DNA of 60,094 bases from Acidobacteriota bacterium (GTDB lineage: Bacteria; Acidobacteriota; Vicinamibacteria; Vicinamibacterales; UBA823), in contig PCAK01000024.1 in NCBI GenBank assembly GCA_002730525.1, forward strand, positions 1-60,094, read 5' to 3'. Made by a program: the position numbers and the translations under genes. The notes under the pieces are model-generated. The model worked only from the letters and a program-made list of their open reading frames with translations. It did not search any database and was not told the DNA's origin. Shown here in pieces: positions 135 through 4,349 of this stretch (positions are counted from its first letter, which is position 1; every line of letters starts with the position of its first letter).

Positions 135-1400
135 CTAGCGTGCCATTGGCAGATCGAGGTCGATGTCGAAGCTGAGGTGGGAGTGGGCGCGGCGGACGGC
201 GGCGACGGCGGCTTCGGGTGTTGCGGCGCTGGCGAAGATGAAGCCGAGGTAGCTCGCGCCCTCGGGCATCGGCACGAGGCGCTGGCCGGGCTTGGCCGTG
301 ATCACCAGGTCGTCCACACCGCGCACCGCCCTCGCGCGATCCTGCCCACGCACACGCCGCAGGTGACCGGCGCGCGGAGTCGGGATCATCATGACCGCCG
401 ACGCACCCGGCGCGCGACGGAACCCGCGCCCCGCTTCGCCGGTCGCATGGCGCAGTAAGACCTCCTCGTAGGAACAGGCCCGACCCGATGGGCCGACGCA
501 CCGCAGGACACGGGCGCACAGGCCGCCGATCGGCCGGGCCGCCACTTCCAGGACGACCACCCCGCCGGGTCCGAGCCGGCACTCCGCATGCACCGGCCCG
601 TGGGTCAGGCCGAGCGCGCGGACCGTGCCGGCCAGAGCTTCTTCGATCGCGGTGCAGACGTCGGGCGCCAGGCTCGTCGGCGTGGCGTAGATCGTCTCTT
701 CGAAGAACGGCCCGTCGAGCGGGTCGGGTTTATCGAAAATCGTCATGACATGGAGGCGGCCGTCGTCCAGGAGCCCCTCGACCGTGATCTCGGCGCCCTC
801 GACGTATTCCTCCACGAGCACCTGATCGTTGGCCGGATCGCGCAGCGCGCGGATCCCCGGCTGCGCCAGCAGCCGGCCGACCCGGGCCAGCGCCGCATCG
901 AACTCTGCCTGATCGTCAGCCCGGATGACGCCTCGACTGCCCGAGAGTGCCAGCGGTTTGACGACGCAGGGGAAGCCGAGCGGCTCCGCGAGACCGGCGT
1001 CGATCTGATCGAGTCGGATCGCTCGGAAGGCCGGCGACGGGAGCCCAACCTCGGCCAGCCGCCTCCGGTAGCGAAGCTTGTCGGCCGACGCGCGGGCGCC
1101 GTCCACCCCGCGAGCGGGCAGGTCGAACGTCTCGGCCGCCAACGCCGCCAGCAAGGCTGGGCGATCGCCGACGCCAAGGACTCCGTCCACGCCGCGCCCG
1201 TTCATCGCCTCGACGAGGCGGCGGAGCGAGGCCGTCTCATCATGAAACCGCACCGGGATGGCAGCATCCCTCCACGGGTCCTCGAGCGTCTGACACCGAT
1301 CGGTGGCAAAGACCAGGTCCAGACCGAGTCGCTCGGCCGCCTCGCCGAACACGCGTACTTGATATCCGGTCGTCGTGGCGAACAGGATCACACGCGGCAT
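135..1400 (-). CDS. ATP-grasp domain enzyme, last gene of the selenoprotein operon
   Basis: A 421-residue protein starting at ATG 1400 (MPRVILFATTTGYQVR). A longer open frame upstream is rejected because it runs back into the radical SAM gene. The fold is ATP-grasp: an N-terminal pre-ATP domain (about 1-105), then the nucleotide-binding lobe with FPCVVKPLALSGSRGV and VLVEEYVEGAEITVEG, and the acidic metal-binding stretch VHAECRLG...VVLEVAARPIGG. Such enzymes join a carboxylate to an amine or thiol through an acylphosphate, as in carboxylase-like and L-amino-acid ligase families; the substrate here is unknown. It starts only 23 bases after the true stop of the radical SAM selenoprotein, so the two are almost certainly cotranscribed and probably act in one pathway. 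The SECIS-like hairpin ends 20 bases before this start codon. Confidence 0.85.
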   Translation of the reverse strand: MPRVILFATTTGYQVRVFGEAAERLGLDLVFATDRCQTLEDPWRDAAIPVRFHDETASLRRLVEAMNGRGVDGVLGVGDRPALLAALAAETFDLPARGVDGARASADKLRYRRRLAEVGLPSPAFRAIRLDQIDAGLAEPLGFPCVVKPLALSGSRGVIRADDQAEFDAALARVGRLLAQPGIRALRDPANDQVLVEEYVEGAEITVEGLLDDGRLHVMTIFDKPDPLDGPFFEETIYATPTSLAPDVCTAIEEALAGTVRALGLTHGPVHAECRLGPGGVVVLEVAARPIGGLCARVLRCVGPSGRACSYEEVLLRHATGEAGRGFRRAPGASAVMMIPTPRAGHLRRVRGQDRARAVRGVDDLVITAKPGQRLVPMPEGASYLGFIFASAATPEAAVAAVRRAHSHLSFDIDLDLPMAR

Positions 1401-1419: not shown

Positions 1420-1453
1420 CCAACTAGAGGAGCGCGACCTGCTCCTCGGTCGG
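1420..1453 (-). promoter_or_regulatory. Bacterial SECIS-like hairpin behind an in-frame UGA
   Basis: Reading the minus strand, UGA (1462-1460) is followed six bases later by CCGAC (1453-1449), then GAGGAGC (1447-1441), a 7-nt loop AGGUCGC (1440-1434), GCUCCUC (1433-1427) and GUUGG (1424-1420). The upper stem has 7 perfect pairs. The lower stem has 5 pairs with one G-U, separated by a C / UA internal loop. The loop begins 19 nt after UGA. In E. coli fdhF the spacing is 17 nt and the loop is AGGUCU; the shared GGUC is the part SelB contacts. Position, size and loop sequence all fit a bacterial SECIS element. Confidence 0.8.
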
Positions 1454-2854
1454 CTCGGCTCAGCAGTACCACGGTTCGTTGAGATACGGGATGGCCGCCC
1501 GCGCCGACGCCCCGGCCTCGGGCACCGGCCGACTCACGCCGGCACGTTCGTGCGCCAGGTCCCACACCGCCTCGAAGGCCTCGCGGCGCGGCGCGGTGAC
1601 CCAGCGCCCTACCAGCGCCGTCACATCGGCCTGGAGCGCGTCGACGCGAGCGTCCGGGTGACGCCACGGGTAGATCAGACCGTCGGGTTGGAACGGACCG
1701 ACGGCGCTAGCGACCTCGGCGTGCGCCAGCAGGCCCGATCGTTCGGGCAGCAGCAGGCGGATCGCGAGTTGGATCGGCGCCACCGCGTCGATCAGGTCGA
1801 GGGCCGCCACCTCCTCGAGCATCCGACAGTAGGTGTCGAGCGTGGTCCACGGAGTGAACGGCACGAAGGTCGGCGTGAGGACCAAGCCCACCGCGCGGCA
1901 CGCCTCCACGGCCCGGGCCACGTCGGCGCGCGTGTGGCCCTTGTCGAGAATCTCGAGGACGCGATCGTCGAACGATTCGACGGCGCTCGTCACGAAGGCG
2001 CAGCCCGTGTCCCGCAGCGTCGGCAGCAGGTTGACCTGGTCGAGCAGGTGCTCGACCTTGACCGTCACGTCGTAGCTGAGATCCGGGAACGTCCGGGCCA
2101 CGCGACGGACGATCTCGACGGCGTGGGTCGGCCCGTTGAAGAAGTCGGGGTCACCGAACGTGATGTGGCGCGCGCCCGCCTCGACCTGAGCCCGGATGTC
2201 GGCGAGCACGACGTCGGGCGCCACGACCCGGAAGCACCCCTCGTAGACCGGCACGATCGGGCAGTGCCGGCAGGTGTGCTTGCACCCCCGGCTCGCCTCG
2301 GTGTACCCGACCAACCGGCGACCACCCGCCGCGTCGCTGAGCGCCGCGTACTGCGCCAGCGGCGGCAACGCGCCGCGATCGGGCACCTTGAACCTGAGCC
2401 GTGGAAGCTGGGTGGCGGCAGCGGGCGGCGGGCGGCCCTCGCCCAACGCGACCGCCAGGTCGGTGAGATCGGCTTCGAACTCGGGGCCGAGCACCGACGT
2501 CACGCCCAGTTCGGCCAGCAGCTGGGCGTTGGGCGGCGCGTAGAGGCCGTAGCCGCACAGGTGAGCGTCCGGGTTCACGTCGCGGACGCGCTGGATGATC
2601 GGCAGGGCCAACCGCGTCGCCGTGTGCATCGGGAGATACCAGGCGACCAGGCCGGCCCGTGACACCACGTCGTTGGAGAGTCGCTCCCGGGTGAGATCGA
2701 CGCAGGTCACGTCGACCCCGGCATCGCGCAGCCACGCCGCCGGCGACGCCAGCCCGAAGGGCTGCCGGCCCATCTCGTAGGTGCCGATGAGCAGCGCGCG
2801 CAGCGGCTCCGACCGCGCCTCGGCTCGACGACGGTCCGGCTCGGTGGGCGTCAC
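1424..2854 (-). CDS. CUAEP-tail B12-binding radical SAM selenoprotein (UGA read as Sec)
   Basis: Start GTG 2854 overlaps the stop of the symporter (GTGA). Residues 1-130 form a B12-binding-like Rossmann domain (LRALLIGTYEMGRQPFG... then LCGYGLYAPPN). The radical SAM core follows with the cluster motif C-K-H-T-C-R-H-C in ASRGCKHTCRHCPIVPVYEGC and the FGDPDFFNG strand. An ordinary reading stops at TGA 1462-1460 after ...LNEPWYC. Reading TGA as selenocysteine gives C464-U465-A466-E467-P468 and a short tail TEEQVALL ending at TAG 1426-1424, for 476 residues. C-U/C-A-E-P is the signature tail of a known radical SAM (seleno)protein family, and a SECIS-like hairpin lies in place. The vicinal Cys-Sec pair is probably a redox or substrate-binding site. 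The reaction is unknown. The neighbours suggest that a small molecule is imported (symporter) and then ligated (ATP-grasp). Confidence 0.85.
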
Positions 2855-4266
2855 GGCGTCACCGCGCGGTCCGCGGCCGGTCGGGTGGCCAGGCTGACGA
2901 CGACCAGGGTGACGATCGACAGCGTCAGCGCCGGATAGACCGTCTCGACTCCGAATGGGTACGCCGCGACACCGTCCTCGGCGCGGGCCAGCCCGACGAT
3001 CTCCCAGACGAGCGTCGTCGTCATACCCACGAGGATCGACGCGACACCGCCCGTCGGGGTGGCCCGCGGCCAGACGAGCGCGGCGAGCAGCGCCGGCGTG
3101 ATCCCGGCCCCGTACATCGTGTAGGCCCACAGCGCCATCGCGAGGATCGTCGGAAAGAAGTTGCCCGCGATGTAGCCGACCGCGCCGAGCGCGACGACCA
3201 TCAGCCGCGTGTAGGCGAGGACCTGCCGGTCCGTCGCGCCTGGGTTCACGAAGCGCTGGTAGACGTCGCGCATCAGGTTGGTGGCCGGCGTGAGCAGGAA
3301 GCTGTTGGCGGTGGACACGACGATCGCCGCCGCGCCGCAGACCAGCAGGATGCCGAGTCCCGTGGGTAGGGCCTGTAGCGCAACGTTGATCACGATCGAT
3401 TCCGAGCCGGCCGTGTCGAGCCCCGGAACGGCGACGCTGCCGAACACGCCGACCGAGTCGATCAGCGTCTCGACGACGATCGTGCCGACAATCCAGCCGA
3501 TCACGGCGCGGCGCGCCGCCCGCTCGTTCTTCGCGGAGAAGAACTTCTGGTACATGTTGGCTTCGCCGAGCAGGAGGAAGAGTGTCGGAAAGAACAACGC
3601 CAGCGCCGCCTGAGGCGACAGTTCGCCGAACAGCGACACCTGCTCGGGCCTGAGCGACCCGAGGGCCGCCGTCAGCCCTCCCGCATCCGAGACGAGGAAG
3701 GCCACGGCCAACGTCACGCCGACGACCATGACCGAGCCGTTAGCGATGTCGAGGTAGGCGATCGACAGCATGCCCGCCATCGCGGTGTAGACGACGCAGA
3801 ACGTGGCCGTCAGCAGCGCGCCGGTGCGCGGGTCGATCCCGGCAACCAATTCGAGCAGCCGCCCGCCGCCCCGAAACTGGTAGGCCGCGATCGTCGTGTA
3901 GGCCAGGACGGTCGTGAGGGTCCCCAGAATCCGCGCGGCCGGACCGAAGCGCAACTCCAGAATGTCCGGTACCGTGTACTGCGCGAGCCGGCGCACGCGG
4001 GGCGCGATGAAGTAGACGAGTGCTATCCCTACCCACGCGCCGGCCGACTGCCAGAGCGCCGGAAAGCCGGCCCGGTAGCCGAGCCCGGCGCCGGCGAACA
4101 GGCTGCCCGAGCCAATCCAGGTCGACAGCAGCGTGAACACGAGCACGCGCGCCGGCAGCGTGCGGCCGGCCACCAGGAAGTCATCGCCCGTGCGCACCTG
4201 CCGGCTGCGCCAGGCGCCGACCACGACCAGCGCGCCGAGATAGAGGGTGACCGCGGTCAGGAACAT
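2851..4266 (-). CDS. Sodium:solute symporter (SSS family)
   Basis: A 471-residue integral membrane protein starting at ATG 4266 (MFLTAVTLYLGALVVVG). About 13 hydrophobic segments alternate with short loops. Typical SSS features are the SRQVRTGDDFLVAGRTLP loop after helix 1, the LLSTWIGSGSLFAGAG stretch of the first unwound helix (Na+ and substrate site), and the conserved YTVPDILELRFG. The family couples Na+ entry to uptake of sugars, amino acids, vitamins or carboxylates; the substrate cannot be told from sequence. The 4-bp GTGA overlap with the radical SAM selenoprotein gene indicates translational coupling, so the transporter probably supplies or salvages a substrate of that pathway. It is the first gene of the three-gene operon. 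Confidence 0.85.
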   Translation of the reverse strand: MFLTAVTLYLGALVVVGAWRSRQVRTGDDFLVAGRTLPARVLVFTLLSTWIGSGSLFAGAGLGYRAGFPALWQSAGAWVGIALVYFIAPRVRRLAQYTVPDILELRFGPAARILGTLTTVLAYTTIAAYQFRGGGRLLELVAGIDPRTGALLTATFCVVYTAMAGMLSIAYLDIANGSVMVVGVTLAVAFLVSDAGGLTAALGSLRPEQVSLFGELSPQAALALFFPTLFLLLGEANMYQKFFSAKNERAARRAVIGWIVGTIVVETLIDSVGVFGSVAVPGLDTAGSESIVINVALQALPTGLGILLVCGAAAIVVSTANSFLLTPATNLMRDVYQRFVNPGATDRQVLAYTRLMVVALGAVGYIAGNFFPTILAMALWAYTMYGAGITPALLAALVWPRATPTGGVASILVGMTTTLVWEIVGLARAEDGVAAYPFGVETVYPALTLSIVTLVVVSLATRPAADRAVTP

Positions 4267-4349
4267 GAAGGCTCGCGTCAGGATATCAGGCCGGCGGGAA
4301 CGGTCACGGGAGCAAGCGCTTGATATGATCGCGAGCACGCTAGGTCTCG

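What the first reader, a model, noticed from the sequence alone, without database searches (positions are those of the whole stretch)
1424..2854. Radical SAM selenoprotein with a CUAEP tail and SECIS-like hairpin
The radical SAM frame stops at TGA (1462-1460) directly after Cys. Read through, it continues A-E-P-T-E-E-Q-V-A-L-L and ends at TAG 1426-1424. C-U-A-E-P is exactly the tail that defines the CUAEP/CCAEP-tail radical SAM (seleno)protein family (established knowledge). A hairpin with a 7-bp upper stem and loop AGGUCGC begins its loop 19 nt after UGA; E. coli fdhF has 17 nt and loop AGGUCU. An ORF caller would lose the Cys-Sec tail. The enzyme reaction is not known, and a redox-active Cys-Sec pair at the very end of a B12/radical SAM enzyme suggests an unusual chemistry or a swinging-arm redox role.
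Basis: partly seen in the sequence, partly recalled or inferred. Interest (0 to 1): 0.95.

Follow-up and report, generated by a model that had tools for sequence, protein, structure and literature searches.

The report
Radical SAM selenoenzyme with Cys-Sec tail
This is a real bacterial enzyme gene whose apparent stop codon is read as the selenium amino acid selenocysteine near the end of the protein; the enzyme family already has a name but no known job, and its gene partners now point to a small-molecule pathway tied to iron-sulfur chemistry.

Summary
The minus-strand gene at 1424-2854 reads through TGA 1462-1460 to NEPWYC-U-AEPTEEQVALL and scores 615.7 bits against NCBIfam NF040546 (CUAEP/CCAEP-tail radical SAM (seleno)protein, cut-off 500). 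Relatives switch between U and C at that codon (115 CU, 44 CC, 2 reversed UC); the downstream hairpin covaries in U genes and is lost in C genes; the genome has selA, selB, selD and tRNA-Sec. Selenocysteine is as good as proven short of chemistry. The family is named, but its reaction is unknown. New here: the nearest other family is the arsinothricin synthase ArsL, whose C-terminal Cys-Cys aligns with Cys-Sec; an L-amino-acid-ligase-like ATP-grasp enzyme accompanies it in 19 of 20 genomes tested (0 of 8 without it); the third neighbour is the iron protein YggX or the Fe-S carrier Nfu, never both in 130 loci; no arsenic genes lie nearby. Most likely it is an ArsL-like enzyme whose Cys-Sec arm holds a soft element or substrate, making an amino acid that the ligase then joins. 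The chemistry is inferred; cobalamin binding is not supported.

The parts
1424..2854 (-). CUAEP-tail radical SAM selenoprotein gene, 476 aa with Sec465, GTG start, TAG stop
   Evidence: read-through translation; NF040546 615.7 bits, cut-off 500
1460..1462 (-). in-frame TGA read as selenocysteine (U465)
   Evidence: aligns with Cys in 44 distinct homologues and TGA in 115
1463..1465 (-). TGC, Cys464, vicinal partner of Sec465; aligns with the first Cys of the CC pair in ArsL's RCCLKC
1427..1447 (-). SECIS-like hairpin, 7-bp stem, loop AGGUCGC at 1440-1434
   Evidence: compensatory pairs in U homologues, lost in Cys homologues
1424..1426 (-). true stop TAG
2261..2284 (-). CxxxCxxC radical SAM cluster motif (C191, C195, C198)
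   Evidence: invariant in A1 and in 161 of 161 members
135..1400 (-). partner gene: ATP-grasp, L-amino-acid-ligase-like protein, 421 aa, invariant Cys295 (codon 518-516)
   Evidence: PF13535, PF18603; nearest solved structure 3vot BL00235 L-amino acid ligase, 236 bits; co-occurrence with the radical SAM gene
2851..4338 (-). upstream SSF-family sodium/solute symporter overlapping the radical SAM start by 4 nt; probable operon member in this clade only
   Evidence: PF00474; found beside the gene only in the window and L003-L006

Best explanation
Shown by sequence: the gene encodes a CUAEP-family radical SAM protein whose UGA, eleven residues before the end, is a selenocysteine codon served by a downstream SECIS hairpin and a complete Sec system. 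Shown by comparison: it belongs to a conserved module of the radical SAM enzyme, a dipeptide-type ATP-grasp ligase, and either YggX or Nfu. Inferred: as in its relative ArsL, the [4Fe-4S] cluster on C191-C195-C198 reductively cleaves SAM; the flexible C-terminal arm brings its Cys464-Sec465 pair to the cluster, holding a soft element or a substrate, and a SAM-derived fragment (3-amino-3-carboxypropyl, as proposed for ArsL) is transferred, giving a non-protein amino acid. The ATP-grasp ligase then joins that amino acid to another. The product probably serves iron or Fe-S homeostasis, or else YggX/Nfu keep the oxygen-labile enzyme loaded. My confidence by step: Sec insertion 0.97; family membership 0.98; three-part module 0.85; ArsL-like chemistry 0.4; Fe-S-linked role 0.5.
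For: Sec; Sec system in own genome. SelB over cut-off in 49 of 53 U genomes against 5 of 10 Cys genomes (p 0.003) and in 19 of 19 U against 11 of 21 Cys in a second, partly overlapping set (p 0.0005). ArsL: 261 bits, next family 41; shared active-site residues and aligned terminal CC/CU. Module: ATP-grasp orthologue in 19 of 20 CUAEP genomes tested and 0 of 8 without; partners within 4 kb and none at 4-10 kb; YggX at 59 loci, Nfu at 22, both at 0 of 130; 17 Nfu-linked genomes have no YggX at all. Own-genome YggX lies 126 nt from a contig end in the orientation that would join the window's edge. Ligase type. Fold.
Against: No reaction has been shown for any member that I could find. The protein fails the ArsL model (261 of 450 bits), lacks the third tail Cys and has no ars genes nearby, so substrate and radical type may differ. 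41 of 130 loci show no known partner, many of them with short flanks. Linkage is not proof of a shared pathway.
Confidence: 0.5

Rival explanations
1. The Cys-Sec pair is a redox relay only: like the C-terminal Cys-Sec of thioredoxin reductase it forms a selenenylsulfide and passes electrons to or from the active site, and the radical SAM step is ordinary 5'-deoxyadenosyl chemistry.
For: Vicinal C-U on a less ordered C-terminal arm (tail pLDDT 70-79 against above 90 in the core); U and C, and even the reversed U-C order, are interchangeable, as expected for a redox pair.
Against: The nearest family ArsL carries a terminal CC in the same place in an enzyme that handles As(III) (PMC8552651), which points to element binding; no reductase is part of the module.
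Confidence: 0.27
2. It is an organoarsenical synthase, an arsinothricin-type enzyme acting on arsenite.
For: ArsL is the closest other family; ArsL-family clusters also carry an ATP-grasp enzyme.
Against: None of 11 arsenic-operon queries has a convincing match in 101 CUAEP loci; below the ArsL cut-off; RCCLKC absent; the gene is widespread in Acidobacteriota and Chloroflexota beside iron proteins.
Confidence: 0.07
3. It is a cobalamin-dependent radical SAM methylase.
For: The two-domain fold matches TsrM, OxsB and MgmA.
Against: The top match is the diol dehydratase AprD4 (Z 27.8), which to my knowledge does not use cobalamin; Pfam B12 15 of 32.1 bits; DxHxxG not conserved.
Confidence: 0.1
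4. YggX and Nfu are only maintenance factors that reload the radical SAM cluster in air, and the pathway product has nothing to do with iron.
For: Both are Fe or Fe-S handling proteins and are alternatives to each other; Nfu is known to service radical SAM enzymes such as LipA (general knowledge).
Against: YggX occurs once per genome in these phyla and nearly always at this locus, and in the UC genome it sits beside the ATP-grasp gene, not the radical SAM gene, so it may serve the product rather than the enzyme.
Confidence: 0.4
5. The TGA is an ordinary stop, a sequencing error or a decayed end.
For: Gene callers end the protein there; the single hairpin is not thermodynamically striking.
Against: TGA at the same codon in 115 distinct homologues from several phyla, with covarying hairpin and SelB.
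Confidence: 0.02

Closest known systems
NCBIfam NF040546, CUAEP/CCAEP-tail radical SAM (seleno)protein
   Same: Full-length match above the equivalog cut-off, CxxxCxxC cluster motif, C-U-A-E-P tail
   Different: Nothing in the protein itself. New here are the gene partners, the ArsL link, the covarying SECIS and the reversed UC members; the window's SECIS register is shifted by 2 nt
ArsL / RCCLKC-tail radical SAM protein (NF040542), arsinothricin biosynthesis
   Same: Closest other family; many shared active-site residues; terminal vicinal Cys pair; some clusters also hold an ATP-grasp enzyme
   Different: 261 of 450 bits; tail is CUAEP not RCCLKC and about 50 aa longer; extra invariant Cys285; no ars genes nearby
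Radical SAM selenoproteins TIGR04167 (rSAM_SeCys) and TrsS (NF045646)
   Same: Radical SAM proteins predicted to hold Sec (PMC13188914)
   Different: Different families; neither was listed at E 0.1 for this protein in the NCBIfam scan
Cys-Sec (CU) selenoproteins such as SaoL, SaoC, HgcA, MbdU
   Same: Vicinal Cys-Sec motif as tabulated in PMC13188914, several with proposed metal or organometallic roles
   Different: Compared by motif only, not by sequence
L-amino acid ligases BL00235 (3vot) and BacD (3vmm), for the partner gene
   Same: ATP-grasp ligases; profile matches of 236 and 98 bits
   Different: Substrates unknown; one homologue (L032) has TGA at the invariant Cys295

Membership tests
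NF040546 CUAEP/CCAEP-tail radical SAM (seleno)protein | Model score at or above 500 bits | tested here: met
   615.7 bits over residues 21-474
NF040546 CUAEP/CCAEP-tail radical SAM (seleno)protein | C-[U/C]-A-E-P tail | tested here: met
   NEPWYC-U-AEP
Radical SAM superfamily | CxxxCxxC motif and Radical_SAM domain | tested here: met
   PF04055 51.4 bits; motif invariant
Radical SAM superfamily | [4Fe-4S] cluster and reductive SAM cleavage | not testable with these tools
   needs biochemistry
Bacterial selenoprotein | In-frame UGA aligned with Cys in homologues | tested here: met
Bacterial selenoprotein | SECIS hairpin shortly after the UGA, conserved by compensatory change | tested here: met
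   goes with U in about 10 of 13 independent pairs and against it in 0.1
Bacterial selenoprotein | SelA, SelB, SelD and tRNA-Sec in the genome | tested here: met
Bacterial selenoprotein | Selenium in the protein | not testable with these tools
   75Se or mass spectrometry needed
ArsL (NF040542) | Model score at or above 450 bits | tested here: not met
   261.1 bits
ArsL (NF040542) | RCCLKC C-terminus | tested here: not met
   only the vicinal pair aligns; the third Cys is Pro468
ArsL (NF040542) | ars operon context | tested here: not met
   no convincing match to 11 ars queries in 101 loci
Cobalamin-dependent radical SAM enzymes | Two-domain Rossmann plus radical SAM fold | tested here: met
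   model pLDDT 92.6; AprD4 Z 27.8, OxsB 26.0, TsrM 25.1
Cobalamin-dependent radical SAM enzymes | Cobalamin binding (Pfam B12 cut-off, conserved DxHxxG) | tested here: inconclusive
   below cut-off, motif in 7 of 161; binding itself is not testable, and some enzymes bind without the motif (general knowledge)

The most novel reading that the evidence does not exclude
The CUAEP radical SAM enzyme and its ATP-grasp ligase form an undescribed two-enzyme pathway, common in Acidobacteriota and Chloroflexota, that makes a small amino-acid-based iron ligand or low-molecular-weight thiol/selenol working with YggX or Nfu in Fe-S cluster supply and repair, with selenium used in the first enzyme and, in at least one lineage, perhaps in the ligase too.
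Probability: 0.28. Interest if true: 0.88.

Novelty: new member of a known kind. Interest (0 to 1): 0.64.

Why it matters
A named but uncharacterised selenoenzyme family now has three leads that can be tested: its relation to ArsL (unusual SAM cleavage), a ligase that accompanies it genome-wide, and a third partner that is an iron or Fe-S protein of one of two unrelated kinds. If the product acts in Fe-S maintenance it would be a new small-molecule part of iron metabolism in two large environmental phyla. It also shows a selenoprotein end that annotation still cuts off even in a cultured type strain (Thermomicrobium roseum).

Tried and rejected
Rfam scan of the window: no match, uninformative. 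Papers by Haft on new selenoprotein families and the ArsL enzymology paper are not held, so the claim that the module is undescribed rests on the open library only and on the 2026 review table. Solved-structure sequence search with the radical SAM protein: none. TGA in the G377 ATP-grasp match: only its ordinary stop. 'UC' label for L157 in my neighbour script: a false pattern match. Loci without known partners were scanned for shared neighbours: MoaA-type proteins, arginase, NadA and integrases appear in 2-4 of them each, no consistent partner. The distance of Cys285 to the Cys-Sec pair could not be measured because model coordinates are not exported. The structure job for the ATP-grasp protein had not finished. 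Arsenic context: rejected.

Full report
WHAT IS THERE. On the minus strand a gene starts at GTG 2854, overlapping the stop of an SSF symporter gene (2851-4338) by four bases, and runs to TGC TGA at 1465-1460. Read through the TGA it gives NEPWYC-U-AEPTEEQVALL and stops at TAG 1426-1424. With the TGA as Sec the protein (476 aa) matches NCBIfam NF040546, 'CUAEP/CCAEP-tail radical SAM (seleno)protein', at 615.7 bits against a cut-off of 500; the next family is ArsL at 261 (cut-off 450), then 41. An ATP-grasp gene follows 23 nt later (1400-135).

IS THE TGA SELENOCYSTEINE? Four lines say yes. (1) Homologues: in the first 81 genes (80 loci plus the window) 56 have TGA, 21 Cys, 2 a reversed U-C, and 2 are masked in or near the tail. 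Over all loci fetched later, 161 distinct proteins split 115 CU, 44 CC, 2 UC, with 17 parsimony switches between U and C on a tree built without the tail. (2) Hairpin: 79 distinct U genes keep five stem pairs at 91-100% with several compensatory pair types; 24 Cys genes keep them at 21-42% (shuffles). On phylogenetically independent pairs the hairpin goes with U in about 9.9 of 13 and against it in 0.1 (median p 0.002). (3) Machinery in the same genome: selA 552 bits, selB 332, selD 352 (itself with an in-frame TGA) and tRNA-Sec 61.6, all above cut-off. (4) Co-occurrence: SelB over cut-off in 49 of 53 U genomes (three of the four misses are 61-75% complete) against 5 of 10 Cys genomes, and 19 of 19 against 11 of 21 in a second, partly overlapping set. 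The energy of the single hairpin is not remarkable, so the case is comparative. RefSeq ends the T. roseum protein at WFC although TGA GCG GAG CCG follows: the tail is lost in practice.

RELATIVES AND STRUCTURE. ArsL and the RCCLKC-tail proteins on plasmids are the nearest outside the family (28-34% identity). In an alignment of 74 family members with four of them, many near-invariant residues are shared (RGC-H-C-C, D235, D237, H269, E293, K305, W336, R366, W397), and Cys464-Sec465 falls on the CC of RCCLKC; the third Cys of that motif is Pro468 here, while Cys285, invariant in this family, is Val or Leu in ArsL. ArsL is reported to be required for hydroxyarsinothricin formation from arsenite, proposed to go by transfer of the 3-amino-3-carboxypropyl group of SAM (PMC8552651); that its tail cysteines bind As(III) is my recollection of work not held here. 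The AlphaFold2 model is confident (pLDDT 92.6; tail 70-79) and matches AprD4, OxsB, MgmA and TsrM over both domains. Canonical cobalamin features are missing, so 'B12 enzyme' is not established.

GENE PARTNERS. In the first 101 loci, ATP-grasp, YggX and Nfu genes cluster within 4 kb of the radical SAM gene and none occurs at 4-10 kb. The ATP-grasp protein resembles L-amino acid ligases (3vot 236 bits, BacD 98 bits). Its orthologue is present once in 19 of 20 CUAEP genomes tested, chosen mostly because it was not adjacent, and absent from 8 of 8 genomes without CUAEP; the one miss is 74% complete. The third partner is YggX (PF04362), in Acidobacteriota usually after the ligase and in Chloroflexota usually directly upstream of the radical SAM gene, or an Nfu-type Fe-S carrier (PF01106 with PF08712). 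Of 130 loci 59 have YggX, 22 have Nfu, none has both (chance of no overlap about 3e-7 if independent; relatedness of loci not corrected). In the 42 genomes searched, 24 have YggX, each at a single place: beside the radical SAM gene in 21, beside the ligase in the UC genome G415, at a contig end in the window's genome, and apart (a divergent match) in G550; the 17 other Nfu-linked genomes and G389 have none. In the window's own genome YggX lies 126 nt from the end of contig C39, in the orientation that would continue the window's left edge, and the C39 stretch is 89% identical to the region beyond the ligase in the sister genome L002. A POT peptide transporter is a further neighbour in Acidobacteriota. 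Arsenic genes are absent.

HOW IT MOST LIKELY WORKS. Shown: a radical SAM protein with a Cys-Sec tail, in a conserved module with a dipeptide-type ligase and an iron or Fe-S protein. Inferred: ArsL-like SAM cleavage with the Cys-Sec arm presenting a soft element or substrate to the cluster, producing a non-protein amino acid that the ligase couples. The dipeptide-type ligase, the peptide transporters and the ArsL parallel (ArsL-type clusters in Priestia, Pantoea and Alicyclobacillus also carry a homologous ATP-grasp gene, 25-29% identical) fit this. Whether YggX/Nfu serve the enzyme or the product is open. A redox-only role of the Cys-Sec pair remains a serious rival.

NOVELTY. The family exists in NCBIfam, so the protein is a new member of a known, uncharacterised kind. 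The family is not in the 119-family table of a May 2026 review, and no paper found in the library links it to YggX or an ATP-grasp enzyme. The module, the ArsL alignment and the reversed UC members are what I add. A single homologue (L032, a genome with SelB) has TGA at the otherwise invariant Cys295 of the ligase (93 of 94 sites have Cys); its hairpin is not better than shuffles, so this is a lead only.

Noticed in passing
L032:7251-7253 (+): In-frame TGA exactly at the invariant Cys (IGGLC to IGGLU) of the ATP-grasp partner, in a genome with SelB and a CU-tail radical SAM gene; a possible second selenoprotein of the same pathway. The other 93 of 94 sites read Cys; hairpin not significant.
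   Followed up: partly
L035 and L057 (Chloroflexota): Reversed order WY-U-C-AEP: Sec at the first position, Cys at the second, hairpin 3 nt further from the UGA, SelB present. The two form one clade.
   Followed up: partly
L142:7947-9440 (Thermomicrobium roseum DSM 5159 plasmid): RefSeq WP_012643191.1 is annotated as ending at WFC although TGA GCG GAG CCG (Sec-AEP) follows: a missed selenoprotein end in a cultured type strain.
   Followed up: yes
G000 contig C39 end (L237) and window 1: The YggX gene ends 126 nt before the contig end; the last bases encode what looks like the start of an IS110-type transposase (VTIGLDLGDR), which may explain the assembly break between C39 and the window.
   Followed up: partly
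G000:C10:38726-39655: selD of the same genome itself carries an in-frame TGA, so it is probably a selenoprotein too.
   Followed up: no
G787:C6:258586-259107 and G817:C6:248420-248947: YggX beside the radical SAM gene is a tandem duplication within one reading frame (about 210 aa).
   Followed up: no
L061, L068, L071, L076, L079: In betaproteobacterial-type Cys-tail loci a GBBH-like_N (DUF971) gene lies directly upstream; this domain also occurs in Fe-S carrier proteins of the Mrp/HCF101 type (general knowledge).
   Followed up: partly
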